Source: Candidatus Omnitrophota bacterium
Lineage (GTDB): Bacteria; Omnitrophota; Omnitrophia; Omnitrophales; JACQLI01
Assembly (NCBI GenBank): GCA_016179745.1
Contig: JACPCP010000023.1
Location: 1 to 51,847 of the forward strand
Length of the DNA: 51,847 bases
Direction: 5' to 3'
The translations under genes were made by a program, and so were the position numbers. Within the stretch, counting starts at the first letter, position 1, and every line of letters begins with the position of its first letter. Under the pieces are notes generated by a model. The model worked only from the letters and a program-made list of their open reading frames with translations, made no database searches and had not been told where the DNA came from. This document shows positions 1 through 44,832 of this stretch, in pieces.

Positions 1-2
1 TG

Positions 3-1202
3 GATAAGAGCGACATTCGCCAGTTTTTGATGATGATTAACAAGCTAAATGAGCGTGGGTTCTTGACCCTCGAGGATTTATCCCGCGCCGAGGTGCGGAG
101 CGGCTTAAGGCACGGAGAAGACCCGAACCTTACAGAGCCTCTCCGGAAAGCCGAAAGGCCTTGGTTGCAGGATAATGAGTTATTAAAGTGGAATCTTAGA
201 ACTACGACGACCCGTACTTTAAAGTTTCTTATGGAGAGGATAGATGAAAGAGGAATCTTCAAGCCGGAAGAGCTGGAGGGGATTGTGCTGATTGGCGGGC
301 CGGGGTTCAACGACACACAAATTCTCGAAATCGCTCGTCGATTCACACGCGCTCAATTTGTTGCAGTGGACATTGACGGTCGTTCAATCAAATTCCTGAG
401 AAATAATGTTTTAAAGGCAGATCCGACTCTGGCCGGTCGAATAAGATTTTTAGAAGGAGACCTTAGGGACTTACGCCACTTGGTTGACGCAGATGAGTCT
501 GTTATCGAATTGCCGGATCAGTCTGTCGCAGTGGCCATTTACCCGGCGGTTTTCGATATCTATCAGAATGACTATCAGGATGACTATGTGCGCCTCCGGG
601 AGCTGGGGAAAATCATCTCCGAATCACGTCGAGTGCTAAAGGCGGGTGGCATATTGGGAGCAGCACCGTTTTCAGATGCGCCACACAAATTGATGCAGAA
701 TTTAGGCTTTGAGGATTTGGATCCAGACGACCGGAAACACGAATCCTTTTTGCTTTACCGGAAACCGGAGAGTCCAAAATCCATTTCCGGAAGTGAACCG
801 CCCACTGCCCGTTCTGAGATGCGGTCTGCTTCGCCCGCCAGGGGCGAGCTTCGCAGAACCGATGCCTCTGCGGTGGAGGTGGCGGTAGGAGCGCTGTTTG
901 GGGTGATGGCGAAGGAAGTTTGGCAAGGACTGAATAGAAGCGAAACACGTGCGCTTTGGATCACGATTCGGCCGGCGAGCGTTCGGGTCAGAAGGGACGA
1001 AATGACAGGGCAAAAGACCTGGAGACAAGCCCCCGGGTCCGAGAGCTCTCAGATTGCTTTTCCGCCACAAGGCGTGGCGGCTCGCAATGACAGACGGGCA
1101 GGGCAATCTTCTCGTGCCAGGCAAGTGGTATTTCTCAGCCCCACGGATCAATGGATTACAAGCCAGGCTGAAACCGCCCCGGTCTTTGCCTCCGCCGCCT
1201 GA
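3..1202 (+). CDS. Class I SAM-dependent methyltransferase-like protein, 5' end off the window
   Basis: The frame is already open at the left edge. A TTG/ATG cluster at 27-35 could be a start, but the codons before it read on without a stop, so the gene probably begins outside. The middle shows a Rossmann methyltransferase pattern: IVLIGGPGFND as a divergent glycine-rich SAM loop, FVAVDID with the acidic residue after strand 2, LPDQSVAVAIY near strand 4, and SRRVLKAGGILGA before strand 5. Substrate unknown. After the domain (about nt 770 on) comes a low-complexity tail with the linker motif RSEMR (nt 810-824). Its last third is translated from a dispersed GTCATTGCGAG-type repeat, so the native C terminus was probably shorter. 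An N-terminal RAEVRSGLR resembles the same linker class. Confidence 0.6.
   Translation, partial: DKSDIRQFLMMINKLNERGFLTLEDLSRAEVRSGLRHGEDPNLTEPLRKAERPWLQDNELLKWNLRTTTTRTLKFLMERIDERGIFKPEELEGIVLIGGPGFNDTQILEIARRFTRAQFVAVDIDGRSIKFLRNNVLKADPTLAGRIRFLEGDLRDLRHLVDADESVIELPDQSVAVAIYPAVFDIYQNDYQDDYVRLRELGKIISESRRVLKAGGILGAAPFSDAPHKLMQNLGFEDLDPDDRKHESFLLYRKPESPKSISGSEPPTARSEMRSASPARGELRRTDASAVEVAVGALFGVMAKEVWQGLNRSETRALWITIRPASVRVRRDEMTGQKTWRQAPGSESSQIAFPPQGVAARNDRRAGQSSRARQVVFLSPTDQWITSQAETAPVFASAA
1053..1092 (-). repeat. GTCATTGCGAG...GAAGCAATC-type dispersed repeat, short copy
   Basis: On the minus strand this reads GTCATTGCGAG, a short CCGCCACG/CGTGGCGG hairpin, then AAGCAATC. The same boundary words frame the larger composite element at 29213-29368. 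It lies inside the 3' end of the methyltransferase frame and supplies part of its odd C-terminal tail. Confidence 0.55.
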
Positions 1203-3349: not shown

Positions 3350-3703
3350 ATGCGGTGGATCGGGATCGGACTCATTGGACTTCTGGGCGGATGGGTGAGC
3401 GGGCTTTTCGGCGTGGGGGGCGGGGTGATTTTTGTTCCGCTCCTGGTGCTTTTCCTCGGTGTGAATCTTCATGTGGCGATCGGGACGTCCCTGGTGACGA
3501 TTATTCCGACCGCTCTCGTTGGCGCTTACCGGCATTTTCTCGGGGAGGGCGTTGACCTTAAACTGGCGCTTCTCCTGGCTGTTTTTGCCATCGTCGGGGC
3601 GTGGCTCGGGGCCGGGCTCTCGCTCAAACTGGATGTGGCTTTGCTCCGGAAATTTTATGCCGTCTTTCTGGTTTTGGTGGCGCTCCGCCTCTTTTTTGAA
3701 TGA
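3350..3703 (+). CDS. Half-length TauE/SafE family membrane protein
   Basis: A 117-aa integral membrane protein with about four helices. GLLGGWVSGLFGVGGGVIFVP is the N-terminal signature of TauE/SafE (DUF81) permeases, implicated in export of sulfur-containing anions, followed by AIGTSLVTIIPTALVG. Normal members carry two such halves in about 250 aa; only one is encoded here, so it would have to dimerise or be a truncated gene. GGAGGA lies just before ATG 3350. Its last codons overlap the start of ccsBA by 4 bp (ATGA), implying translational coupling. Confidence 0.75.
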   Translation: MRWIGIGLIGLLGGWVSGLFGVGGGVIFVPLLVLFLGVNLHVAIGTSLVTIIPTALVGAYRHFLGEGVDLKLALLLAVFAIVGAWLGAGLSLKLDVALLRKFYAVFLVLVALRLFFE

Positions 3704-6700
3704 TCACACCTCTCTTCCGATTTTTTGCCTCTCTCAAGTTGGCGATTTTTCTCCTGCTTGCCCTTGCCCTGGTCTTTGCCGTCGGGACCTTTGTCGAGTC
3801 GGCCTACGGCGCCGGGGCGGCCAAGCTTCTGGTCTATGACACCCCCTGGCTTACCGTCCTCCTCCTTCTCCTGGCTTTGAATGTGGCGGCCTCGGCCCTG
3901 GATCGCTTTCCCTGGCAGAAGCGGCACGTGGGTTTTGTGGTGACCCATTGCGGGATCCTCCTGATGCTGGCCGGCTCGCTCGTGACCCGGGCCTTCGGGA
4001 TCGAAGGACAAATGGCGATTGAGGAAGGCCAAACCCAAAGCCGGATGACCCTCAGTCAGCCGGTCGTGGAATTTTTCTCGAGTCGTCACGGGGAATCAAC
4101 CCCCCTCTTTCTCAAATCCAACGCCTTTGCCTGGCAAGGGCGAAAAAAATTACACAGCGATCCCGACATTTGGCTTCTTCATGATTACCCGAAGGCCCGC
4201 CGTGAGGAAATTCTCCGGGAATCCTCCGAGGGGTCTGCCGCTCTCGAGGTCAGCCTGGAGAGTTCTTTTACGAACGTCCGTCAGACGCTGGTGCTGGACG
4301 ATCCCGAACGGAGCCGGGTGAATCTCGGCCCGGCCGAACTCAGTTTCAGCCGGGAGCCCCTGGTGGTCTCCCGTCCTGGCGGGGCGCCCTCGGAGGACAT
4401 CCTCGAATTCCGGTTTGAGAAGTCCTCGATCCAGGTCCCGCTTCCCAAAAGCTTCCCCAAAAAAGTTTCTCTCAAAGGGACCCCTTACGAAGTGACGATT
4501 CTGCGGGTTTTGAAAGACGCCGTGGTGGATGACCAAAAAAATGAACTCGTGGACCGTTCCGGAGAGTGGAACAATCCGGCGTGTGAATTGATGTTGAAAG
4601 GGAAGGGGATCGAGGAAAGGCACACGGTCTTCTCGAAATACCCGGACTTTCCCACGATGCACGGGATGAAACCGAGCGGGGCAGGGGTCCGGATTTTCTT
4701 CCACCGCCACGGCGGAGAATCTTTGGATTCGAAGAATGAGTTGCGATTTGTCTGGTCAGAACGCAGGGGCGAGGCCGCCCCGCCCCTACGCTATCAGATT
4801 CGTTCGGGCGAGAAGATCACGGAGGGAGAGGCCCCGGTGGGCGAAGAGGTCCCGATGGGCTGGATGGATTTCAAGTTCCGGGTGGAAAATTATTACCCGC
4901 ACGCCGAGATGAGCGAAAATTTTACCCCCCTCCCGGCCGAAACCCGGTCGGAGGAACACCCTTCGGCCCTTGAGCTTGAAATGGAAAACGGGGGGGAAAG
5001 AAAATCCTTCTGGCTCGCTCAGGGCGATCATAAAACGATTAGTTTGGGAGATCAGAGCAGGGGCGGCCCGCCGGGTCGCCCTTACGAATTCGTTTACGGC
5101 CTGAGGACGCTCCCCGTGGGCTTTCGCCTCGAGCTGAAGGATTTCAGAATCGAGAAGTATCCTGGCACGAACCAGCCGGCGAGTTTCGAGAGCGACGTGA
5201 TCTTGAAGGACGATTCCACGGGGTCCCGCCGGGAAGTGAATATCAGTATGAACCGCCCCCTCCAGCACCGGGGTTTTCGGGTGTTTCAATCCGGTTACCA
5301 GCAGCCTGAGGGCAGGCCGGAGATTTCGATTTTCAGCGTGGCGAAGGACCCCGGCATTCCGCTGAAATATGCGGGCTCGATCATTTTGGTCCTGGGCACG
5401 CTCTTGATGTTCTACACCCGGAAATTTTCGAACCGGGGCCAGGCGGAATTTTCTAAATCTCAAGAAAGGGGTTCTGGTGTGATGAAAAATGCATTGAAGA
5501 TCTTGTTGGTTTCCGTCCTCGGTTTCATCGTTTCGGCAGCGGCTTCCCCGGACCCTTCTCAAAGGTCCACGGAGGCCCTTCTCGGGAGGATCCCGGTCCA
5601 GAGCGGCGGCCGGGTCAAGCCCTTTGAAAGTTTTGCCCAGGAGATCCTGGTCTCCGTCACGGGAAAGAAGGCGCTGGCCGGCGAGAAGGCATCGATCGTA
5701 TTGTGGAAATGGATTTCCAATCCGGAAGAGTGGCATACGAAGAGTTTTATTCCCGTGAAGCACAAGGCCCTTCGGGAGGAGTTCGGGCTGATGGTGATCG
5801 CCGGAAAAATTTCACCGGAGCTCGCCCTGTCCCACCAATCCTTTCTCCACAAGGTGGAAGAGGCGTCGGCCCGGAAGGAAAGGAAAGAGCCGATCACCCT
5901 TCTTGAAAAGAAAAGGATCGAGCTTCACGAACAGGCCCATCTTTTTGAGGCCATTACCCGGGGCGTTCTTCCCGGTTTCATCCCCCATCCCGAAGACCCC
6001 CGGGAATCCTGGTTTCCGATTGAGGCCCTCGCCACGCCGGGAGGGCAGGAGGCGCTTGGGAAATATTATTCCCCTGAACTCGTGGCCGAAGTTCATGCCG
6101 CCCTGGGAGCGCTTGTCAGGCTTCTTCATGACGGGAAGGAGGGCGCCTCTTCTGCTCACGAATTTGCCTTTTCCCTCGAGCACCTTCGCTCGTCCCGGGA
6201 AATCGTTCTGGATCAAAACAAAATCAATCTCGAATTGGCTTACAATCACCTCCGCCCCTTTCACTGGGCGTGGATTTTGTATCTGGCAAGCGCCGTCCTC
6301 TGGTTGCTCCTAGGGGACAGTCCCCTTAAAGGGGACAGGCAAAAACGGGTGTCCCCAAAAAGGGGACTGCCCCCTCTTATCTTTGGTTTGTTCCTGAGCG
6401 GATTTATGTTTCACACGTTTGGTTTTGTCCTGCGCTGCCTCGTGGCCGGCCGTCCGCCCGTGAGCAATATGTATGAATCCATTATTTGGGTGGCGTGGGC
6501 CGTGGCCTTCTTTTCGATCCCGCTCCGGTTTTTCTCCAGGAACCCTGTTTTGTCGGTTGCGGCGGCGGCCGTGGCGAGCCTGGCGCTTTTGATCGGCGAA
6601 AGTTTTCCGGCCGTCCTCGACCCCTCGCTTTCTCCGCTGGTCCCGGTTTTGAGGAGCAATTACTGGCTCACGATCCACGTCCTGACCATCACCTTGAGCT

Positions 6701-33462: not shown

Positions 33463-36400
33463 ATGAAACCAGACTCCAAAAAGCTTTGTCGAAGGGGGAC
33501 CGCTTTTTTTGTCTCCCTTTGCTTCATCCTTTTAGAAACTGTTGGCAATTTTTCTCCGCTCTTTGCCTCGGAAGGAATGCGGGACCCAGCCATTTCCATT
33601 CCGAGGCGGTTCGGTGAGATCGACGAATTCCGCCCCGGCCGGTCCGGCAAAACCCTCATTTTTATTCAGGATGCCCACGATTCTCTCGAGGCCCAGGAGA
33701 ACATCGGAAAGCTTGTGACGCACCTCGTTGAGAGAGAGGGCGTGAAAACAGTCTATGAAGAAGGTTACGAAGGCCCGGTCCCCACCGACCCGTATTTTGG
33801 ATTTATCCGGAACCCCGGACTGAAACGGAAAGTCTCCTTCTTCCTCATGGACAAGCTCCGGATCGGAGGCGCTGAATATGCCCACATCAACCGGAAGAAA
33901 GATTTTCGTCTGATCGGGGCCGACAGCCTGGCCTGGCATAAAGAGAACCTCCGATGGTTTCGACGCATGTCGGCCCGGAGAAAAGAGACCGAGCGTGACC
34001 TCGAAACGCTCGGAAGCGGGATCCGGAGGCTGGAGGACCGATTTTTCCCAAGGCCGCTCAAGGAATGGATCAAGCTCAAAGAAAGATTCACTAAAAACGA
34101 GCTCTCGTTTGCCGAGTACCTCAAAAGGCTCGGCGCCTTCACCCCCTCCTCAGGGGACTACCCGGCGATCGAACGGGTGCTTAGGGCGAGCGAAGGTCCG
34201 GCATTCGTCGAAAAGTTGAAGGCGCTTCGCCCCAAACAACTCCTCGAGGAAATGGAAGCAATGGAAAACGATTTCGCCGCAAGAGTTCTTTCGGGGGAGA
34301 GAGAAAAAGAGCTCTTTCAATACCATCAAAGCCTTTCCCTCTTGAAGAGACTCGCAGAGCTCAAGATCACGCGAGAGGAATACGGGGCCGTGCGTGGGAC
34401 CCTGAAAGATTTCAGGACGGAGGCGTTGGCCCGCTTCCTTGCCAAAAACCTCAAGGAGCCGGTAGTCCTTTCCAAAGGGTGGGAGAGGAATCTCAAAAAT
34501 GCCCTCCGATTCTACGAAACGGCATTAGAGAGAGATGATGCGGTCAGCGTCCGACTCGAAGAATTTCTGAAAGATCCTCTCGAGAAAAGGGCGGCGCTGG
34601 TCTTCGGCGGATTTCACAAGGAGAAGATCCTTGAAATCGCGAGACAAAAGGAAATCTCTTGTTTTGTTGTCACGCCCCGGATGACGGAACCGAGCCTGAA
34701 GCATCAGCGTTACTACGAGCAGCTGATGTCAGGCTTCCGCTATCCTTTTGAGAGACCGGGGAATCTACACCTGGCGGCCCGGCCCCAGACCTTTTTTGCG
34801 AGAGCCCTTGTAACGGGGAGGGCCGAGGCCCGCCGCCAGATTCGTGAACTCGCCCGGACGCTGGAGGGAAAAGGAAAGAAAGCGCCTCGATCGGAACTTC
34901 GAGGCGGCGGGAAAAGGGCGGTAACCCGTGAAGAGATAAAAGCTCTGATCGCGCCGCTTGCTCAAGGAGTCTCTCCGAAACTCAACTTTCTCACGAGCCT
35001 CGAAAAGGTGATGGAACTCAGAAAGATTACCCAGCAGGAAATGGCGGATTACGTCACTCCTCACATCAAAAAGAGACGAGGCCGGGCCCACGCCGGGATG
35101 GTCTCGCACTGGTTCCGTCACAAAAGGATCTCGGGCGAATATGCCTTGAGGGCCGCCCGCAAGACCCTCGGCGATTTTTATCCCGGCGAACCGGACGAAA
35201 AACTTCTCGCCCGGATGGCCGGAAATCCGAATTGGACGAAGGAAGAATTGACGCAGGCCTTTCCTGCTTGGAAAGGGAAGAGGCAGATGCGGCAGAGGGC
35301 GAAGAAAACCGGCGTTCCTTCCGTCGTTCTTCCCCTGACTGAGATTCATGAAATCCTGAATGCCGTCAGAGGAATTGAGCTTTCGCCCGTCGAGTGCTTC
35401 TTTGTGAGCTTTGGTTTGTTCCAGTGGAAATTGGAGGAGCGGGGTGTCCCCGTGACGACTGAAGTTGCAAGGTTTGTCGGGAGCCCCCACCCCGGAATGG
35501 TGACTCACTGGCTTCGTCGGGAATCCCTTTCCCGCCAGAACGCCCGCCTTGTCGCCGAGTATTTCCTGGGGACGGCCTTCCCGGATGATACGAGAGACGA
35601 ACTGGTCCTCAGGATGATCGCTCAGCCGGACCTAACCTCCCGGGACCTTAAAGAAATTTTTCCTGTCTGGGCGGGGAAGAAAACCCGTTCAGAACTGAGG
35701 AAGGCCCCGACACCTGCCGCCGCTCGCTGGCTGACGAACCCTGACGAGACTGACTGGGACCAAGTCTCCCAGTCCCGGAAGCGGTTTCTCGTTAACGCCC
35801 TGCTTCGGGCCACCCGGAAACTTCCGACCGATCTCCTTCGCCTTCCCGGACCCCACGCTTACTGGGAGACCCCCCTCCCGGCCCTCGCCGGAATCAACCT
35901 CGGCCGGCTTTTTCAACACTACGACGAAGAAAGAAAGGCCCTGGGCTACGAGCGGATTTCAACGACTCAATACCTTTTGCATGATCTGGGATTCCTTTAT
36001 GAAGGGCGGGCCGAGACCGAACAGAGGCTCCTCCTGGCCGGAGAAATTGAGAAAGATGAACGGATCCGTTTTCGGGAGATTTCAAAAAAGATCGGCCTTG
36101 CCCACTGGCTTCTCCTTTTTGAAACGAACCAGGCCGCCCTTTTCTATCTCCTGGCGAAGCAATACCCGGAGTTCAGCCGGGCCCAGGAGGGGCTTTTGGC
36201 GCTGATCAGTGAAGAGTTCCTGGAGCTTAAGAATGAAGAAACCCGTCCCTTCTTCTTTGAGGACCTTGAAAAGATGGAACAGAGCTTCCAAGAGTTTCAG
36301 GATCCGGAGCTTCAAGAGATCATTGCCGGGCAGATTCGAAACCGGATTTATCGCACGATTGTTGAGAGGGCCCGGAAGCAGGGGAGAGAAGGGGTGGCGA

Positions 36401-39400
36401 AACGGGCGATCGAGTCGGCGATTGGGTATTTTGAGAAACAGGCCGAAGGCCCCAACTTCCCCGAGTCTGCCCGGCCGGTTTACCACTCGGTTGCTGACGC
36501 CTACCGGCAGCTTGAAAAGGCCGATTATCAGGGTCTTCTTGAGAAAAAGGATGATAAAGGGAGCCTCCTTGAACTTGAGCTCTTCCAACTCGAAGGGATC
36601 GATTTTGCCCTGAAAAACGGAAACATTATCCTGGGGCACGAAATGGGGCTTGGAAAGACCCCCCTGGCGCTGGCCATTGTGCAGGCCCAAAAGGCGGGGC
36701 GGGTGGTGATCATTGCCCCCAACACCTTAAAAGAGGAATGGGAGAGACAAATCCGCATTTGGATCGGAAAAGATGAAAGGGTCCGGGTCATCGATGGAAA
36801 TAACCGAAAGGCCCTTCACCAGATCGAGGAGGCAAAAGCGAACGCCCGGTTCATTGTGATTAACTACGACAAAATAAGAGACCCGGAGATCGTGAAGGCG
36901 CTGAACGATTGGGGCCCGGACGTGAAGATCGGGGACGAGGTCCACCACATCAAAGAGCCCAACGCCCTCCAGTCGGGAGGGACCCAGGCGCTTAAAAAAA
37001 AGGGGGTGGGCTATCTCCAGGTCCGGGCGAAACGAAGCCTCAACCTTTCCGGCACTTCCATCATTAACGAAGTCGAAGACCTCTGGACGGTCCTTCACGA
37101 CATCGATCCTGCCGCCTTTCCAAGCCTGGAACATTTCCGTGAAAACTTTTCAAAGGACCCTCTTTCTTTGGCCCGCTTAACCCTTCTCCTTGGCAAGCGG
37201 TATTTCATCCGGCGGACGGCGGAGGAGGTCTTAGACGATGTCCCCAAAAAGAACGGCGTCGAGTTTATTCCCGTCCGGCTCGATCCGGAACAGCAGAAAG
37301 AGTATGAAAAGGAACTTGCAGGCTATTTGGCGAAGGCGAGAAAAAACATCCTGGCCGCCCAGGAAAAATTAAGGCAGATCGTTCTCGACCTGGGTTATGC
37401 CCTGAAGGGCGAGCGGGAATTCCTGCACCGACGGCCGCCCAAGCTGGCGGAGGCCGTCCGGATTGCCAAATTGAAAATTGACCGGGGAGAGAAAGTCACG
37501 ATCTTCAGCCGTTACAACCACGTAATTGAAAGGCTCAAAGAGATGCTTGCCCAAGAGCTGGGAGAAGAGGCGGTTTCATTTATCTCTTCAGGTCATACTA
37601 CGGATGAAAGGGCCGAGCGGGTCAAGGAGTTTCAGGAAAACGCCGGCAAAAAAGTCTTTCTCTCCACTTACGACCTGGGAGGAGAAGGGCTCACCCTCAC
37701 CAGTGCCAATCACGTGATTTTTACAGACCTTCCCTACACCAAGGCCAAACTCGAGCAGGCGATCGGAAGGGTGCGGCGAAAGGGGCAGGAAAAAGAAGTT
37801 TTCGTCTATGCCCTGGTGGCCCCCGGGACGATCGATGATCAAGTGGTGGAGATCTTAAGGAGGAAAGAGACCGTCTTTGACCAGGTGATCAATGCGATGC
37901 TTGCGGCCCAGGGGCTTGAGGAGCACCTGGGGGCCCGGAGGGTTGACCGGGCCCTGAGACAAGCCTCTCTGGCCGAAAGGGTGCGTGAAGCCCTTTCTTT
38001 CGCCTACGGACGTTCCCTGAAGGGGGACATTCCAGGGGCCAGGAAGTATTGGGAAGAGCTTGCGGCCGCCTATTCCGAGTCCATCGACCGGCTGGCTGCC
38101 TTCCCGATTGCCCAGGCGCTCTTTCTTTATCTGTTGAGGCTCCACGATGAAAAGATGCTCAACCTTTCAGAATCAAAGCGCTGGCTCTTCGCCCCCTCAG
38201 GGCCTTCTACGGATATCCGGGCCCTCGCCGACCTTTGGATGAAAAATGACAAGATCCGGGAGCGTTTTAGAGACGCCGGGTTTGACCTTCGGGAGCTTCT
38301 TTTTACGGAAGTCGACTTTTCCCCGTCGATGCTCGAACTCGGAAAATCTTTTCTCACGGGCAAGCTCGGCCTTTCCAGCCGGCAGAGGGTGCTCGATTTG
38401 ACCGAAGGGGAATTGCCCCGGGAGGCATATGACTTTGTGGACTCTTCGGAACTTTGGGGGTTTTCCGAAGAGGAGTCGGCGGTGAACAAAAAGGGCGTCA
38501 ATCACCGCACCTGGGTGACCGGGAAACTGGTGGAGGCGGCGAAGGTGGGGGGTTATGTTCTCTTCTGGGCCCACAACAAGGGGATCCCCGCCGAGACAAA
38601 ACAATTTCTTGAAAATTATTTTGGTTTGCAACTGATAAATCCCGAAGTGGATGGGATTGACAGCGAAGAGCTCCCTGAGGAAATCCGTAGACGGCTCGAG
38701 AAATTCTCATTCATCCTGGCGAAGAAAACGAAGCATCTCGAGATGACACCCGAATACCTTCGCTCCCTCCCGAAAGGAAGGCTTAAATTTATTTCGGGGA
38801 GGACGGCGGCCAGTCATCTTGCGGAAAGGGGCCTCTTCGAAAAGGGCGAAGGAGGAGCCCATTCAACCAGTTTAACCCAGTTTCTCTTGCATGGAGACGT
38901 AAGGCCGGTTCGGGGCTGGCGGGGGATAATGACAAGGGAGACGGAAAGAGACGCAGTTCTTTTAAAACTCACGCAGAAATTGCAGCTCTTTCTTGGGAAA
39001 GGGCCGGACTCTGAGGGGATCCAGGAAATCAACCGTATCGTTTTCGAAATTCTCAAACAGGTCCCGACCCCGGCCCTTATTGTCAGCCTGACCCGAATGA
39101 TCGAATATTTTACCAAACAAGATCCGGCGTGGGACCATTACCATTCATTCCTCGAGGGGATTGTCCAGAAACTGGCTGGAGGGAATGGAAAAGAAAAGAA
39201 GAGGAAGGCGGGGAAGAAAAGGGAGAAAAATTGGGAAGGTCCTCGAAAGCCAAAAGGGGATGGCCTGGAGGGAGAAAAAGAAAAGAAGCGGGGACCGAGA
39301 GAGGAGACGGAGGAGGGTCTTTCCGGAGGCCTTACGGATGATCAGCACCTGCTTCAGCTTTTTAAGGAAAACGGCTTTCAATTTAGAGTGAGCCCGGACT

Positions 39401-42400
39401 ACATCCCCGGAGGGCTCCAGTTGGATGGGGAAGAGAAGATCTTCTGGGTTGATCCTTATCTCGTTACCGATGGCGGTCTTTCACCCAAAGAACTTTTGCA
39501 GGTTCTGAATCTATTGACTCACCGTTATCTTCTCGCCGTGCTGAAGCAGAAGCCCGGCTCACCCGCTCAGGAGGACCCCGATGTGGTAGACCGGGCCTCA
39601 CTGAGTCTTGTCTGGCAGCGCTTTAAGCTGCTTCGCAAGGCCAACCGGGACCTCAAAATACTTGAGTCGCTCGACCCCATGAATTCAGAGGACATCTTCT
39701 GGTTTTTCATCAACCTCCGTTCCCTGACGGAAGAGGACATCCAGGGAGTGGTCGAGGGAACCCAGCCGGTCCCGGAGTGGTTTCGCCAGCGTTCCGAAGT
39801 GCGGCAGGGCCATGGAACAGGCGGCGAGAGCGCCAACGTGCGTCTGAGAGTCAATCGGGTCGTGGACCAAATCCGGGATGCTCTTGCGGCCTTAAGAGAA
39901 AAAGATCCGGTCGACCTGGCCCCTCTCTCAGACCCTGCCTTGATTGGCGATTTTTTCAAGCGGCACGGTAAGAAATTCCCCGGCTTGGATCAAGGGCGCC
40001 TGATTGTCCAGTCATCAGGGTATCCGGTCGTGGTCGAGCCGTGGGATCCGGAAGAGAAGACCGAACGTAGAGAGCTTGCGTGGCTTGTGAATAAAGAGGG
40101 AGAAGACGGCCGGTCCCGTAAGGATTGGGTCATCAACTGGTCCGAGGTGGAATTGCCGGGGCCGCCCGGCCGATACGAAAATGGAGGAAGAGTCTCTAAA
40201 GCGCATGTTCCGTATGAGAGTAATCGGGGATGGACAGACGTCCCTTATTCAAGGTTTTACAAAGAAGGGGCTCTGCTCCAGAGAACCCAAGGGCCGGAGA
40301 AGAGATTCCTCATAGTTCCTGAGTCGGATCAAGGTAGAAAGGTCGTGCGCTTCCTTGTTTTTACGCTGGACCCGGAGGGGCGGAGGAGTGTCCGGCCTGT
40401 TGCTTTTTGGGAGGAGCTTCAAGGCCAAAGGATTGATGGGAAGGGCTTTTATTTTTCACACCGGATCCTGACTTTCTCCGGCATGACCATCGGCTTGGGC
40501 AATCCGGATTGGAAGCATGACGCAGTCTTCTTCAGCACAGATCTCGATGGAAGACCGGAGAAGCTGGAAATTTTCGTCCCCAAGTTTGTCCCCGAAGAAA
40601 CGGACAACCCCCGTTCTGAAGTGCGTGACGCCGCACTCCCGATGACCGAGCGGGTAAGTCAGGTGCTCGAGAGGGTGAGAACGGCCATTCATCAACTTCA
40701 GGCAAAGCCGGCTCAACCGGCAGCTGCCGGTCAGCCAAGCGGCGATCGGCCCGGCACCCCAGAAGGGCATCTTATTAGAAAGGCGAGAAAAGAGCTTCTT
40801 GCTGTGATTGAAGATTCTTTTGGCAGCCTTGAGGAAAAAAAGTATTGGAAGACAAAATTAAGGCAAAAGAACTACGGCGCTCTCATTCAATCTCCGTTTT
40901 TCCCCAGCTTTGTCAGGAATGTCAGTTCAAACTACCTGGATTCTACCCATGAGGAACTGGTCAAACTGCTTGAAGAACTCCAGAAGAATCAAGAGTCAGA
41001 GGAATCGATGGCGTTGAGGCAGCTCATTCAGATTGTCCTCTTTGCCTGGTATCCCGATTTGGAGGAGGAGATGGATGCGCCAAAGATTAATGCGGGCCGG
41101 CTTTCAAGAGGGATTGAAAAGGAAAGGCATAAAGAATCTACGTATCGTGGAGAAGAGCTTCATTTTAGCGACGAAAAACCTGGAGAGTTTGGATTGTTTC
41201 ACCCGGAGGATTTTGGGAGACGAGTCAGAATCGAAAATGCCGACCCGCTCCGGTTTGCCTCCATGCTTGCCGCCACGGGCCACGCCCTGGGTGACGAAAG
41301 CGCCCGGAGCGGTTTGGCTCCGGGGAGCGTTCAATGGCTTAAGGATAATTTCTGGACACAATACGGGAATCGGTTGGAGGGGATTCGTCCCGAAGATCTT
41401 GAAGTAAGGCTGAGGAGGTTTCGGGTGCGTAAGGAGTTGGGCAGGAAAGAGGAGTTTGTGACAAGAGACGAGATCCAGGTGATTTGGCTCAAGCCCGAGG
41501 AATCAGGGCCCCAAACTCCGCCGGCCGGACGTCTTGAGGTCGAGATCGCAAGACTGGGGACCGGCTTCCGGCGGGGAGATCTCCAGGGCCGCTGGCATTT
41601 GGATTGGTCCCACGCCACGTTTCCGGTCCCGAAGGGAAAATATGCGGCCGGTAAATCCCTGGGGGAAGGCGACAGAGTAACCTTGAGTTGGGACGATCTT
41701 CAGAAAGACGGGATCCTCGTCAAAGACCCAAACTACCCGCAGCAGGGTTTACACATTTTGCCGCTTAAAATAGGGGGAGAAGAAAAACAGATCGCCATCT
41801 TCAACGTAGATGGAGAAGGCCGGAGAATAGAAGCGAAGCCGGCCGCCGTTTTAAAACAAGGAGAGAGCGTGCTGACACAAGGCGGTGTTTTTGGTTCCCG
41901 CTGGGGAGTGAATGTCTTTGACCGCACAGTGATTCAGCACCTCGGCCCTGATGGGATCAAGGTTGAGCATCACTCTTGGGATTACAACGACACTCGGTGG
42001 ATGGATTTTAAATTTTTCTTTCGGGCGCACTTTTCAAAGGCGGTTCCTGGAAAAAAGGATTTATTGAAGAAGTTCGACGCCTTGGAGGGTCTGCTGAAAG
42101 AGGCGCAAGGCCTGGAACACCTTCAGAGAATTGGACGGTCTCAGACCCTTCGGGGCAGAATAGAACGGATTTTGAAAGACGCCAGAAGTCATTTGGAAGC
42201 AGGAGATCCTTTTCGGGCCGCCCGGACCTTATGGCAGATCGGGGACGATGCGGCCTCCCTTAAAGAAGTGGAAGAAAGAGGCGGAAAAGAGATCTTGGTT
42301 GGGATACGCAGTCTCGTAAAAAATCTTAAAGAGGCGTCCATAAAACCCGAATGGCAGCAAGCGGCCGGCAGGATGGGGAGAAAAGCAGTCAGGGAGGAGG

Positions 42401-44832
42401 AGGTCGAAAAAGTGCTGCGGTCGGCTTACGGGGTTGGGATTAAAGAGGTTGCAAAGGAGATCGAAAATTCAGTTGTTGAGAGAATGGAATTGCCCAGAGG
42501 CAGTCTTTGGCGTTACGGGACCCCTTCCTATGCGGGTTGGTGGAATGAAACCCTCTCCCTTCCCGGGTTTACAATTCCTCTTCTTGACCACAGTATTTAC
42601 TACCATATGCCAGAGATGGTTCGCTGGCTTCGGGGACTCTACACAGAAATCAGAAAAGGACGGTCCAGGGACCTCCTCTTGAATCCACGGTTTGGTCATC
42701 TCAGCAAAGCCGACAGTCCGAGATGGCATCGGAAGTTCGGCCTCGAGCGATGGACTGCCTTCGTCCACAACTTTGCGATGCTTGCCCAAATGAAAAAAGC
42801 CGAGAGGAAATCCGAGCCCTCCAAAGCTCGCTCCGAGCTTAGGAGTCAGGAGATTCAAGCGAGTGTTCGTCAGGTAGAAGAGAAATTTCACGCCATGATT
42901 GCGGGATTAAAGGATGGGTCAAAGAGACCCCCCGCGCGAAGCGCTGACTCAGGCGAATCGCCTCGCAAAGCAGGGGAAACCGCCCAAGAAGAAACTCCTC
43001 CCGAGGCAGAACCTTTGGAGGTAGGGCGTTTGAAGGAAAAAGGGTGGAGCCTCATTCAAACGGCGATTCCTCAGGCCAAGTTTGTGGGAGACGTTAGTGC
43101 CCCGTATTCGTATTGGTTAGAGCTCGCGAAAAAACGAGATTCTTTCAGACTCGATACCCCTCTCTTCTATCGGTTTATTCGCGGAGTCGGCTTCGGAGAG
43201 AAGAGGATCCCGTTCGAGTTTCTGGCTTTTCTTAAGGAGCTAGGGGCTTACCCGACGGATCCTCATCTATCTGCCTTGAGAGAATTGATCCGGGGAATGA
43301 TCTTTGCCTGGTATCCGAATTTAGAAGAGGAGATTTTCGCGCTGACCCTCAATACTGCAAGAATAGAAGAGAGGATTCACCAGCAAGAATTTCAGTTGGA
43401 AGAGCATTACCATAAATTTGGTCTTCATGACCCGCCGTACGATCCAGAGGACGGTCCGGTTAAGTTCGATCTTCTGGAGATATTAGAATTTTTCGCTGAC
43501 GGCTTCCTAAGCAAGATCGACTGGTTAAGGGTCGCGTCGATTCTTGCGGCAAAACCGTTTGCGATTGAGTTTAGTAACGAAACCAAGGATTTTCTGAAAG
43601 GAAATTTTGTGAGTCAGTATGGAGATAGACTTGGCGCGATCAATCCCGAAAAGCTCGAGGTCAGGGTCTACAATAATCAGCGAATCACCTACCCGGCTCC
43701 CGGTGTCGAGTTTTCTGAAGAGATTACTAATAACCAAGTGTGGATTGTGCTTCCTGGCCTCCTGGGCGAGATTCATCTGGCCCGTCTCGGGACCGGTTTC
43801 ATCCGGGGGGATCGGCAAGGGGTTTGGCACGTCGACTGGAGTCGAATGGAATTTCCGATTCAGTCCGAAAGAAGATATTCCCCGGGCATGGCCCTTGCGA
43901 ATAAACCTTATGCCACACTCTCTTGGAAAGAGGTCGGCAACGAAGGGATTTTTGTGAGAAACCCTTCGGACGAAAAAGAATCCCTTGTTGGTTTCCCCTT
44001 CAAGGTCCCAGGAGAAGAAGTCCAGCTTGCGATCTTCTCCCTGGGCCCCGAAGGGAAAAGGAATAATCCCAGGCCGATTGCGAGTCTGAGAACAGGAAAT
44101 CATTTTGTCCACGGTTCTCGTGGGGCATCGTGGAATCGGGAACCACGTGTCTCTATTTCTTTCCAAAATCGGGGCCCTTCCGGAATCCATATAGAGCACT
44201 CACGCGTCCCGGATGAAAAACAGGTTTTCTTCCAGGCGCTTTTTTCAGAAGGGCCCAAATCTATTCGTGCAGAAACTCGAGAAGCGAAGATGCGCAAGCC
44301 CATTCGGGTTTCCAAATTGATTGAGAGGTTCTCGGCGCCCGCTCGGGCGATCCTGGATGCTCGGGAGCTTGAGTTCCTGGATCCGGAACAGCTTGACGAG
44401 CTTCTTGTTTTACTCAAGCGTCATCGTGATTTCGATCTTTACCTCTACAATGTTCAAAAGGCGAGTCTGGCTTCGGGCCGGGCGGGGGAGCTCGTCCGCT
44501 TGAAACAGGTCCATCAAAGGGGGGAGGTCACCCTAGAAGAGGCGCTCCGAAATTTGGACCTTGGACGAAAGAAAGTCGTCTTCCATCTTTCGAGGCAGTT
44601 TGTTCCTCGTTTGGCAGAAATCGAGAAATGGCGGGCTCGGGCCCTCTTCGTCAATTATGAGCAGGCAGGGGTCTTGAGCTGGTTCCTTTACCGAACGGAA
44701 CTTGGGAGGAGAGGGAACGATCTTGATGAGTTCTTTGTCGGGATCGACGGCCGGTGGGCCGTCTCTCACGGGCTTCTGGAGACTTTTGTTGCCGATCTCA
44801 GAGAGGATTTGGCCATTGCCTGGTCCGCTTAA
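33463..44832 (+). CDS. Giant multidomain protein (3789 aa) with signal peptide, SNF2 helicase, MTase-like and triplicated modules
   Basis: Residues 1-36: Sec-type signal (KKLCRR, then FFVSLCFILLETVG, ending FAS). 50-440: domain with LIFIQDAHDSLEAQENIGKL and VYEEGYEGP, a family I recall from Omnitrophota, superficially like TraB/ChaN hydrolase folds. 505-610 and 632-740: two similar HTH-like modules (HAGMVSHWF at 543, HPGMVTHWL at 676). 1030-1480: SNF2 ATPase with GHEMGLGKT (1058), GDEVHH (about 1159) and AIGRVRRKGQ (about 1434). 1560-1750: methyltransferase-like (VDFSPSMLELGK, VGGYVLFW). 1906-1956: very charged linker. 2222-2376, 2440-2860 and 3190-3597: three related modules. RSExR linkers start at residues 476, 742, 2110, 2384 and 3123. 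No stop or frameshift in 11.4 kb. An exported protein should not need an ATP-driven DNA translocase; that contradiction is unexplained. Confidence 0.85.
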   Translation: MKPDSKKLCRRGTAFFVSLCFILLETVGNFSPLFASEGMRDPAISIPRRFGEIDEFRPGRSGKTLIFIQDAHDSLEAQENIGKLVTHLVEREGVKTVYEEGYEGPVPTDPYFGFIRNPGLKRKVSFFLMDKLRIGGAEYAHINRKKDFRLIGADSLAWHKENLRWFRRMSARRKETERDLETLGSGIRRLEDRFFPRPLKEWIKLKERFTKNELSFAEYLKRLGAFTPSSGDYPAIERVLRASEGPAFVEKLKALRPKQLLEEMEAMENDFAARVLSGEREKELFQYHQSLSLLKRLAELKITREEYGAVRGTLKDFRTEALARFLAKNLKEPVVLSKGWERNLKNALRFYETALERDDAVSVRLEEFLKDPLEKRAALVFGGFHKEKILEIARQKEISCFVVTPRMTEPSLKHQRYYEQLMSGFRYPFERPGNLHLAARPQTFFARALVTGRAEARRQIRELARTLEGKGKKAPRSELRGGGKRAVTREEIKALIAPLAQGVSPKLNFLTSLEKVMELRKITQQEMADYVTPHIKKRRGRAHAGMVSHWFRHKRISGEYALRAARKTLGDFYPGEPDEKLLARMAGNPNWTKEELTQAFPAWKGKRQMRQRAKKTGVPSVVLPLTEIHEILNAVRGIELSPVECFFVSFGLFQWKLEERGVPVTTEVARFVGSPHPGMVTHWLRRESLSRQNARLVAEYFLGTAFPDDTRDELVLRMIAQPDLTSRDLKEIFPVWAGKKTRSELRKAPTPAAARWLTNPDETDWDQVSQSRKRFLVNALLRATRKLPTDLLRLPGPHAYWETPLPALAGINLGRLFQHYDEERKALGYERISTTQYLLHDLGFLYEGRAETEQRLLLAGEIEKDERIRFREISKKIGLAHWLLLFETNQAALFYLLAKQYPEFSRAQEGLLALISEEFLELKNEETRPFFFEDLEKMEQSFQEFQDPELQEIIAGQIRNRIYRTIVERARKQGREGVAKRAIESAIGYFEKQAEGPNFPESARPVYHSVADAYRQLEKADYQGLLEKKDDKGSLLELELFQLEGIDFALKNGNIILGHEMGLGKTPLALAIVQAQKAGRVVIIAPNTLKEEWERQIRIWIGKDERVRVIDGNNRKALHQIEEAKANARFIVINYDKIRDPEIVKALNDWGPDVKIGDEVHHIKEPNALQSGGTQALKKKGVGYLQVRAKRSLNLSGTSIINEVEDLWTVLHDIDPAAFPSLEHFRENFSKDPLSLARLTLLLGKRYFIRRTAEEVLDDVPKKNGVEFIPVRLDPEQQKEYEKELAGYLAKARKNILAAQEKLRQIVLDLGYALKGEREFLHRRPPKLAEAVRIAKLKIDRGEKVTIFSRYNHVIERLKEMLAQELGEEAVSFISSGHTTDERAERVKEFQENAGKKVFLSTYDLGGEGLTLTSANHVIFTDLPYTKAKLEQAIGRVRRKGQEKEVFVYALVAPGTIDDQVVEILRRKETVFDQVINAMLAAQGLEEHLGARRVDRALRQASLAERVREALSFAYGRSLKGDIPGARKYWEELAAAYSESIDRLAAFPIAQALFLYLLRLHDEKMLNLSESKRWLFAPSGPSTDIRALADLWMKNDKIRERFRDAGFDLRELLFTEVDFSPSMLELGKSFLTGKLGLSSRQRVLDLTEGELPREAYDFVDSSELWGFSEEESAVNKKGVNHRTWVTGKLVEAAKVGGYVLFWAHNKGIPAETKQFLENYFGLQLINPEVDGIDSEELPEEIRRRLEKFSFILAKKTKHLEMTPEYLRSLPKGRLKFISGRTAASHLAERGLFEKGEGGAHSTSLTQFLLHGDVRPVRGWRGIMTRETERDAVLLKLTQKLQLFLGKGPDSEGIQEINRIVFEILKQVPTPALIVSLTRMIEYFTKQDPAWDHYHSFLEGIVQKLAGGNGKEKKRKAGKKREKNWEGPRKPKGDGLEGEKEKKRGPREETEEGLSGGLTDDQHLLQLFKENGFQFRVSPDYIPGGLQLDGEEKIFWVDPYLVTDGGLSPKELLQVLNLLTHRYLLAVLKQKPGSPAQEDPDVVDRASLSLVWQRFKLLRKANRDLKILESLDPMNSEDIFWFFINLRSLTEEDIQGVVEGTQPVPEWFRQRSEVRQGHGTGGESANVRLRVNRVVDQIRDALAALREKDPVDLAPLSDPALIGDFFKRHGKKFPGLDQGRLIVQSSGYPVVVEPWDPEEKTERRELAWLVNKEGEDGRSRKDWVINWSEVELPGPPGRYENGGRVSKAHVPYESNRGWTDVPYSRFYKEGALLQRTQGPEKRFLIVPESDQGRKVVRFLVFTLDPEGRRSVRPVAFWEELQGQRIDGKGFYFSHRILTFSGMTIGLGNPDWKHDAVFFSTDLDGRPEKLEIFVPKFVPEETDNPRSEVRDAALPMTERVSQVLERVRTAIHQLQAKPAQPAAAGQPSGDRPGTPEGHLIRKARKELLAVIEDSFGSLEEKKYWKTKLRQKNYGALIQSPFFPSFVRNVSSNYLDSTHEELVKLLEELQKNQESEESMALRQLIQIVLFAWYPDLEEEMDAPKINAGRLSRGIEKERHKESTYRGEELHFSDEKPGEFGLFHPEDFGRRVRIENADPLRFASMLAATGHALGDESARSGLAPGSVQWLKDNFWTQYGNRLEGIRPEDLEVRLRRFRVRKELGRKEEFVTRDEIQVIWLKPEESGPQTPPAGRLEVEIARLGTGFRRGDLQGRWHLDWSHATFPVPKGKYAAGKSLGEGDRVTLSWDDLQKDGILVKDPNYPQQGLHILPLKIGGEEKQIAIFNVDGEGRRIEAKPAAVLKQGESVLTQGGVFGSRWGVNVFDRTVIQHLGPDGIKVEHHSWDYNDTRWMDFKFFFRAHFSKAVPGKKDLLKKFDALEGLLKEAQGLEHLQRIGRSQTLRGRIERILKDARSHLEAGDPFRAARTLWQIGDDAASLKEVEERGGKEILVGIRSLVKNLKEASIKPEWQQAAGRMGRKAVREEEVEKVLRSAYGVGIKEVAKEIENSVVERMELPRGSLWRYGTPSYAGWWNETLSLPGFTIPLLDHSIYYHMPEMVRWLRGLYTEIRKGRSRDLLLNPRFGHLSKADSPRWHRKFGLERWTAFVHNFAMLAQMKKAERKSEPSKARSELRSQEIQASVRQVEEKFHAMIAGLKDGSKRPPARSADSGESPRKAGETAQEETPPEAEPLEVGRLKEKGWSLIQTAIPQAKFVGDVSAPYSYWLELAKKRDSFRLDTPLFYRFIRGVGFGEKRIPFEFLAFLKELGAYPTDPHLSALRELIRGMIFAWYPNLEEEIFALTLNTARIEERIHQQEFQLEEHYHKFGLHDPPYDPEDGPVKFDLLEILEFFADGFLSKIDWLRVASILAAKPFAIEFSNETKDFLKGNFVSQYGDRLGAINPEKLEVRVYNNQRITYPAPGVEFSEEITNNQVWIVLPGLLGEIHLARLGTGFIRGDRQGVWHVDWSRMEFPIQSERRYSPGMALANKPYATLSWKEVGNEGIFVRNPSDEKESLVGFPFKVPGEEVQLAIFSLGPEGKRNNPRPIASLRTGNHFVHGSRGASWNREPRVSISFQNRGPSGIHIEHSRVPDEKQVFFQALFSEGPKSIRAETREAKMRKPIRVSKLIERFSAPARAILDARELEFLDPEQLDELLVLLKRHRDFDLYLYNVQKASLASGRAGELVRLKQVHQRGEVTLEEALRNLDLGRKKVVFHLSRQFVPRLAEIEKWRARALFVNYEQAGVLSWFLYRTELGRRGNDLDEFFVGIDGRWAVSHGLLETFVADLREDLAIAWSA

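What the first reader, a model, noticed from the sequence alone, without database searches (positions are those of the whole stretch)
33463..37920. Sec signal peptide on a protein with a complete SNF2 helicase and HTH modules
The N terminus has a textbook signal (basic, hydrophobic, FAS cut site), yet residues 1030-1480 carry intact SNF2 motifs (GHEMGLGKT, GDEVHH, AIGRVRRKGQ) and two HTH-like units precede them. ATP-driven DNA translocation outside the cytoplasm makes no obvious sense. Options are that the chain is cleaved before export, that it is exported as an effector acting on DNA of another cell, or that the signal is an anchor.
Basis: partly seen in the sequence, partly recalled or inferred. 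Interest (0 to 1): 0.72.

Follow-up and report, generated by a model that had tools for sequence, protein, structure and literature searches.

The report
Exported giant protein with built-in SNF2
A group of uncultured bacteria makes enormous proteins that carry an export signal and strings of enzymes normally found inside cells, here a DNA motor and elsewhere much of sugar breakdown, almost emptied of cysteine and joined by a short repeated peptide, which suggests that complete intracellular machinery is being sent outside the cell.

Summary
The signal and the SNF2 core are real. It belongs to a large family of giant Omnitrophota proteins. Each has an N-terminal signal plus a conserved ~400-aa header (predicted TIKI/ChaN/Ere fold with the 2His/2acid residues of TIKI hydrolases). 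Then come very different modules separated by the pentapeptide R[SA]E[VLMAI]R (A[AS]SLG or GFGAA in three genomes). Most ends read -SA or -AA. The SNF2 unit starts at this motif in all six copies found and keeps its helicase motifs. Five of the six sit in ORFs with signal and header; the sixth is cut by a contig end. The giants are almost free of cysteine (0.022% against 0.82% in ordinary ORFs). All SNF2 and TIM modules tested have none, while other homologues have 3-7. A 14,650-aa frame carrying much of glycolysis has three cysteines, all at GAPDH active sites; an 8448-aa frame in another genus shows the same. I conclude that the chain is really exported and its enzymes are kept functional. 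Cleavage at the joints, a protease role for the header and action in another cell are inferences.

The parts
33463..44832 (+). complete ORF, 3789 aa, stop included
33463..33567 (+). signal peptide-like segment, residues 1-35
   Evidence: sequence; Ala35 nearly invariant in A1; AF2 helix 6-28 followed by a low-confidence stretch 30-39
33595..34782 (+). header domain, residues about 45-440, predicted TIKI/ChaN/Ere fold
   Evidence: A2 alignment of 60, AF2 pLDDT 89.8, Foldseek and VIA
33670..33678 (+). D70-A-H72, candidate catalytic acid and first His
   Evidence: invariant in 60 sequences
33760..33762 (+). E100, candidate catalytic Glu, 28 residues after H72 as in BcR135 and RRSP
   Evidence: residue numbers of RRSP and BcR135 from PMC6254334
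34615..34617 (+). H385 of GGFH, candidate second catalytic His
34819..34833 (+). motif-like RAEAR, residue 453
   Evidence: may be chance
34888..34902 (+). joint RSELR, residue 476, first joint after the header
35053..35283 (+). HTH-like repeat 1, residues 531-607
35452..35682 (+). HTH-like repeat 2, residues 664-740
35686..35700 (+). joint RSELR, residue 742, left edge of the SNF2 unit, conserved in six copies
35686..39789 (+). SNF2 unit, residues 742-2109, recurs as a cassette only in giant ORFs
36613..37347 (+). SNF2 N-terminal ATPase lobe, residues 1051-1295
37474..37785 (+). helicase C-terminal lobe, residues 1338-1441
39790..39804 (+). joint RSEVR, residue 2110
40612..40626 (+). joint RSEVR, residue 2384; first residue of a duplicated unit
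40612..42039 (+). duplicated unit copy 1, residues 2384-2859
   Evidence: 31% over 476 aa, 5.5e-51, alignment starts at the joint
42829..42843 (+). joint RSELR, residue 3123; first residue of the second copy
42829..44250 (+). duplicated unit copy 2, residues 3123-3596
44215..44829 (+). C-terminal domain shared with other giants, residues about 3585-3789
   Evidence: six other frames match it and end at exactly the same point
44824..44829 (+). C-terminal tail -SA
   Evidence: 34 of 41 giant ends are -SA or -AA against 8 of 328 ordinary ends

Best explanation
The gene encodes an exported giant multi-enzyme protein. Supported by sequence evidence: a signal peptide sends the chain out by Sec; a TIKI-like header follows; independent modules are joined at a short peptide that marks module edges; the chain ends in a -[SA]A tail; the modules have lost their cysteines but kept their catalytic residues, so they are selected to work after passing through, or living in, an oxidising space. 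Inferred: the joints are processing sites where a protease (possibly the header itself, possibly a tail-recognising protease) frees the modules. The freed SNF2/HTH unit then acts on DNA in a place that has ATP, most likely the contents of a host or prey cell, because the periplasm has none.
For: Header at the N-terminus with QDAH 54-238 aa (median 94) after the upstream stop in 80 ORFs; 0 joint motifs inside the header (34,553 aa) against 336 in 160,120 aa downstream; the first joint lies 69-129 aa after GGFH in 49 of the 63 ORFs that have one. 132 motif hits against 3.2 in shuffles. 0 of 87 motifs fall inside Pfam domains, 10.3 expected. Module homology begins at the joint: SNF2 unit in 6 of 6 and the internal duplication. 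Cysteine 0.022% in own-genome giants (46,094 aa) against 0.824% in 72 ordinary ORFs; SNF2 modules 0 in 6 of 6 against 4-7 in 11 others; TIM modules 0 in 3 of 3 against 3-6 in 30 free-standing. C8 frame of 14,650 aa: 3 Cys, all at GAPDH SCTSN; G025 8448 aa: 2 Cys after the signal, both at GAPDH SCTTNC. Catalytic residues kept: SNF2 motifs in six modules, TIM Lys/His/Glu, GAPDH Cys and His. TIKI fold and residues. Tail 34 of 41 against 8 of 328. Joint flanks are less hydrophobic than random positions (z -7).
Against: No cleavage, secretion or activity has been observed; all is sequence inference. The joint motif is confined to part of the phylum: six giants from other orders have the header but no comparable enriched motif, and their Cys is only partly reduced (0.07-0.40%). 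Foldseek hits to TIKI structures are not significant alone (E 0.015-0.037) and VIA Z is 6.5-8.1, within the range common for unrelated models. Cys is not rare in the crude 'signal-like' ordinary ORFs of this genome (0.764%, n = 15, the class includes false positives; 0.331% in others). One SNF2 core in a 10,197-aa frame of another order (L192) has 4 Cys. No Shine-Dalgarno-like sequence precedes the ATG. ATP outside the cell is unexplained.
Confidence: 0.66

Rival explanations
1. The giants are exported but stay whole as surface or periplasmic scaffolds; the joints are flexible linkers and the enzyme domains serve binding, not catalysis.
For: Published readings of Omnitrophota giants are adhesion and surface coats (PMC10066038, passages). 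Joint flanks are linker-like. No protease is shown.
Against: The motif is five residues long, sequence-specific and replaced by other exact motifs in other lineages, more than a flexible linker needs. Catalytic residues are kept, including the only cysteines of two giants.
Confidence: 0.22
2. The N-terminal segment is an anchor or targeting signal to an internal membrane-bounded compartment of the bacterium, where the modules act.
For: It would give the enzymes access to cofactors; glycolytic enzymes in one frame resemble a compartment's set.
Against: No evidence of such a compartment was sought or found; Ala35 conservation suggests cleavage; cysteine loss points to an oxidising space.
Confidence: 0.08
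3. Cytoplasmic protein with a chance hydrophobic N-terminus; the SNF2 unit is an ordinary chromatin or defence helicase.
For: The helicase core resembles ZorD, DpdE and DrmD models and SsoRad54.
Against: Signal plus header in all five SNF2-bearing ORFs with intact N-terminus; zero cysteine in six modules against 4-7 elsewhere; defence matches cover only the helicase core.
Confidence: 0.04

Closest known systems
Giant ORFs of Omnitrophota (Seymour 2023, PMC10066038; passages read)
   Same: Same phylum, very long ORFs, proposed role in host or prey interaction
   Different: The passages read describe few annotated domains, transmembrane helices and adhesion domains; no common header, joint peptide, tail, cysteine loss or housekeeping enzymes were mentioned in them
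TIKI superfamily (Tiki, TraB, ChaN, Ere esterases, RRSP; PMC6254334 passages)
   Same: Predicted fold; two His and two acidic residues; 28 residues from first His to Glu
   Different: First acidic residue is Asp, not Glu; about 400 aa with a long helical insertion; used as the N-terminal header of giants; activity unknown
MARTX and other autoprocessing multi-effector toxins (recalled; MARTX is described in PMC6254334)
   Same: One exported chain with several enzyme modules, presumed release by cleavage
   Different: No known autoprocessing domain identified here; modules are housekeeping-type enzymes; the joint peptide is repeated
SNF2 family, SsoRad54 and bacterial defence helicases
   Same: Complete helicase motif set
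   Different: Exported context, cysteine-free, fixed in a ~1370-aa unit that starts at the joint peptide
Viral polyproteins (recalled)
   Same: Modules with short repeated junction peptides
   Different: Bacterial chromosome, signal peptide, modules recur in varying order

Membership tests
TIKI superfamily | alpha/beta fold of ChaN, Ere and HopBA1 | tested here: inconclusive
   AF2 pLDDT 89.8; the four best Foldseek rows are Ere-like (E 0.015-0.037); ChaN Z 8.1, EreC 7.5, HopBA1 7.3, BcR135 6.7, none above chance levels alone
TIKI superfamily | 2His/2Glu catalytic set | tested here: met
   D70, H72, E100, H385 invariant in 60 rows; His-Glu spacing 28 as in RRSP and BcR135. Asp replaces the first Glu
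TIKI superfamily | sequence profile match | tested here: inconclusive
   Pfam ChaN/Tiki in 3 of 24 members, best E 0.014
TIKI superfamily | hydrolase activity | not testable with these tools
   needs biochemistry
SNF2 ATPase | helicase motifs I to VI | tested here: met
Zorya/DISARM/Dpd defence helicases | family-specific regions outside the helicase core, and partner genes | tested here: not met
   PADLOC matches listed cover about residues 289-768 of the 1369-aa unit and the flanking segments have none; NCBIfam cut-offs missed by a wide margin; partner genes were not searched for
MARTX-like autoprocessing toxins | known autoprocessing domain and repeat arrays | tested here: inconclusive
   no curated family above its cut-off besides helicases; profiles could miss divergent domains
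Sec-exported proteins | n-region charge, hydrophobic core, small -1 residue | tested here: met
   sequence, crude rule; no dedicated predictor available

The most novel reading that the evidence does not exclude
A whole order of bacteria exports polyproteins that are cut at lineage-specific pentapeptides by their own TIKI-type header (or a coevolving protease), releasing cysteine-free but catalytically intact copies of core cytoplasmic machines, including a SNF2 DNA translocase and most of glycolysis, which run inside or on the contents of another cell.
Probability: 0.33. Interest if true: 0.97.

Novelty: categorically new. Interest (0 to 1): 0.9.

Why it matters
If the chain is exported and its modules work, bacteria send complete intracellular machinery, including ATP- and NAD-dependent enzymes, across their membrane, which is not expected of Sec cargo. 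Giant genes of this phylum have been known without a shared logic; header, joint, tail and cysteine loss give one that can be searched for in any genome, and they make the question 'what are these giants for' testable with small constructs. Lineage-specific joints also offer a natural set of matched site and enzyme pairs, if they are protease sites.

Tried and rejected
A mobile DNA element as the cause of the repeated peptide: in the own genome the motif codons are more uniform than background and the DNA pattern is found 65 times against 1 for the reversed control. But synonymous codons vary freely in G021, G027 and G037, so selection on the peptide is the simpler reading; a DNA-level contribution in the own genome stays possible.

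The SNF2 unit as a known anti-phage helicase: only the core matches. Searching the PDB by header profile found nothing significant. The first genome-contig scan with the first 1486 aa found nothing; the header profile then found 121 (best 80 kept). Pfam and NCBIfam on residues 1487-3789 gave no family. The HTH model was poor. In lineages without R[SA]ExR a de novo count gave A[AS]SLG and GFGAA, but nothing convincing in six giants of other orders. Foldseek and VIA rows outside the TIKI group were taken as noise, mostly helical bundles. Paper searches found no description of the joint peptide or of exported glycolytic giants; bioRxiv is not held, so a preprint on giant genes known to me by recall could not be checked.
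Full report
WHAT IS THERE. The true ORF is 33463-44832, 3789 aa. It opens with a basic and hydrophobic segment. The SNF2 lobes are at 1051-1295 and 1338-1441, and their motifs align without loss to SsoRad54. Residues 1487-3789 match no Pfam or NCBIfam family. The window is contig C22 of a 1.50-Mb, 79% complete genome. The header family hits in named genomes are nearly all Omnitrophota; one of the 80 loci kept is titled Elusimicrobia.

A FAMILY OF GIANTS. The N-terminal ~430 residues have paralogues at the start of other giant ORFs of the same genome. The first 1486 aa match in 39 of 39 genomes, own included, in frames up to 14,273 aa, and the header profile is found in all of those 39 again. 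Across the phylum the header is in 123 of 237 genomes at E <= 1e-12; in other classes it also occurs as a short ORF of about 440-590 aa (for example G150, G161, G141, G044), which suggests that a free-standing exported protein was the ancestor. Twelve positions are invariant in 60 headers, among them D70, H72, E100, R357 and H385. The model is good (pLDDT 89.8). The best structural neighbours are Ere-like and ChaN proteins, members of the TIKI superfamily. Single scores are weak, but the H72-E100 spacing of 28 equals that in RRSP and BcR135 as numbered in PMC6254334 (passages).

JOINTS. R[SA]E[VLMAI]R is far above chance: 132 hits against 3.2 in shuffles of the sampled ORFs that hold it (that pattern also allowed T at position 2 and H at position 5). 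In own-genome stretches, ORFs of 1000 aa or more have 113 motifs in 69,374 aa (one of the 21 ORFs is a masked run of N); ORFs of 400-999 aa have 1 in 28,040; those of 100-399 aa have 4 in 33,647, two of them in the fragment at the window edge. In 80 header ORFs from named genomes there is none inside the header and 336 downstream; 17 of the 80 have no motif. In genomes without it, a de novo count gave A.SLG (10 against 0.19 and 11 against 0.18 expected) and GFG.A (6 against 0.05), placed in a similar way after the header. None of 87 motifs lies within a Pfam domain where 10.3 would be expected. Module homology starts at the joint: the SNF2 unit of the window (742), G021 (6057), G027 (2547), G087 (479), and by alignment offset G027:C115 (1186) and G021:C18 (2162). 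In the window protein itself a duplicated 476-aa unit begins at the joint in both copies. The triosephosphate isomerase of contig C1 sits between joints at 1160 and 1437.

THE SNF2 UNIT. Of 237 genomes of the phylum, 43 match the 1369-aa unit at E <= 1e-10, but near full length it appears only in the giant frames of G000, G087, G021 and G027 (two frames), with a partial copy in G021:C18; all other hits cover mainly the helicase core. The five with an intact N-terminus have signal and header; G087 is cut by a contig end. The HTH-like repeat precedes the unit in G027:C35 and G087 too. Walker A, DExH, motif III, GEG and the final Q-R-R-GQ motif are kept in all six, with conservative changes in some.

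CYSTEINE. This is the strongest evidence for export. After residue 60 the own-genome giants hold 10 cysteines in 46,094 aa (0.022%); 72 ordinary ORFs have 0.824%. Of the ten, six lie in the header, one at residue 645 of the window protein, and three in GAPDH active sites. Comparison within families removes composition as a cause: free-standing TIM 3-6 per domain in 30 of 30, modules 0 in 3 of 3; SNF2 cores 4-7 in 11 of 11 others, modules 0 in 6 of 6. In other Omnitrophota the downstream parts have 0.122% against 1.006% in 247 ordinary ORFs. Giants of six other orders have 0.07-0.40%. That cysteine is avoided in exported proteins of many bacteria is recalled; one search was a listing only.

MODULES ARE WORKING ENZYMES BY SEQUENCE. 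The C8 frame (14,650 aa, N-terminus cut by the contig end) holds TIM, aldose epimerase, PGK, at least two GAPDH copies (three profile matches), cupin GPI, class II aldolase and PGM/PMM; other own giants hold TIM, PEPCK, a protein kinase, a GDP-mannose dehydratase-like domain, a PALP enzyme and an iPGM part. TIM of C1 keeps Lys, His and Glu. GAPDH keeps its Cys and His, and active-site cysteines are the only ones in that frame. G025, another genus, repeats this: TIM and two GAPDH in an 8448-aa frame whose two cysteines after the signal are both at the GAPDH active site. The second TIM copy, in C8, has lost the usual loop 6 sequence, so not every module need be active. No free-standing TIM and no clear free-standing GAPDH was found in this 79% complete genome; most relatives have both.

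ENDS. Of 41 closed ORFs with two or more joints, 34 end in -SA or -AA and 36 in -A, against 8 of 328 ordinary ORFs in -SA or -AA.

HOW IT MOST LIKELY WORKS. Shown at sequence level: header, joints, tail, cysteine loss, intact catalytic sites. Inferred: Sec export; cutting at the joints, because an exact peptide that differs by lineage is easier to explain as a recognised site than as a linker; a protease role for the header, because of its superfamily; action in another cell or its contents, because SNF2, PGK, PEPCK and GAPDH need ATP, ADP or NAD. Omnitrophota have been proposed as predators or parasites (PMC10066038, passages). The helicase could strip or remodel proteins on foreign DNA; this is a guess.

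NOVELTY. The passages read in PMC10066038, PMC12057145 and PMC11573180 describe giants as adhesive, coat-like or carbohydrate-degrading, or survey them, and do not mention header, joint, tail or exported housekeeping enzymes; the searches found none either.

Noticed in passing
window 3-1202 (+): C-terminal fragment of a second giant at the contig edge: joints RAEVR and RSEMR, a methyltransferase-like stretch by eye, no cysteine in 399 aa, tail -SAA.
   Followed up: partly
L166, L182, L167 and L046 (G000:C8:20931-64885, minus): A 14,650-aa frame, open at its N-terminal side, with most of glycolysis and only three cysteines, all at GAPDH active sites.
   Followed up: yes
L168 and L216 (G025:C49): An 8448-aa header ORF with TIM and two GAPDH modules and two cysteines after the signal, both at a GAPDH active site.
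   Followed up: yes
window 1-98 and the end of G000:C8: Contig ends share an identical stretch before RAEVR (DKSDIRQFLMMINKLNERGFLTLEDLSRAEVR), so the assembly breaks at repeats inside giants.
   Followed up: partly
L111, L113, L076, L133, L065: Giants of other genomes use A[AS]SLG at the joints instead of RSExR; L065 uses GFGAA.
   Followed up: partly
own-genome joints (for example G000:C1, C8, C14): Codons at the joint are unusually uniform (CGC-[T/G]CC-GAG-GTG-CGG) in this genome but not in relatives.
   Followed up: partly
L047 (G021:C48), residue about 583 of the frame: A second QDAH-like header motif inside a giant, QDAHGYLEIQ, perhaps a tandem header.
   Followed up: no
window 38305-38355 (residues 1615-1631): A stretch reading TEVDFSPSMLELGKSFL looks like a methyltransferase SAM-binding region by eye; no profile match.
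   Followed up: no
L192 and L198 (G119:C56): A SNF2 core in a 10,197-aa frame of another order that keeps 4 cysteines; no joint motif in the part read.
   Followed up: partly
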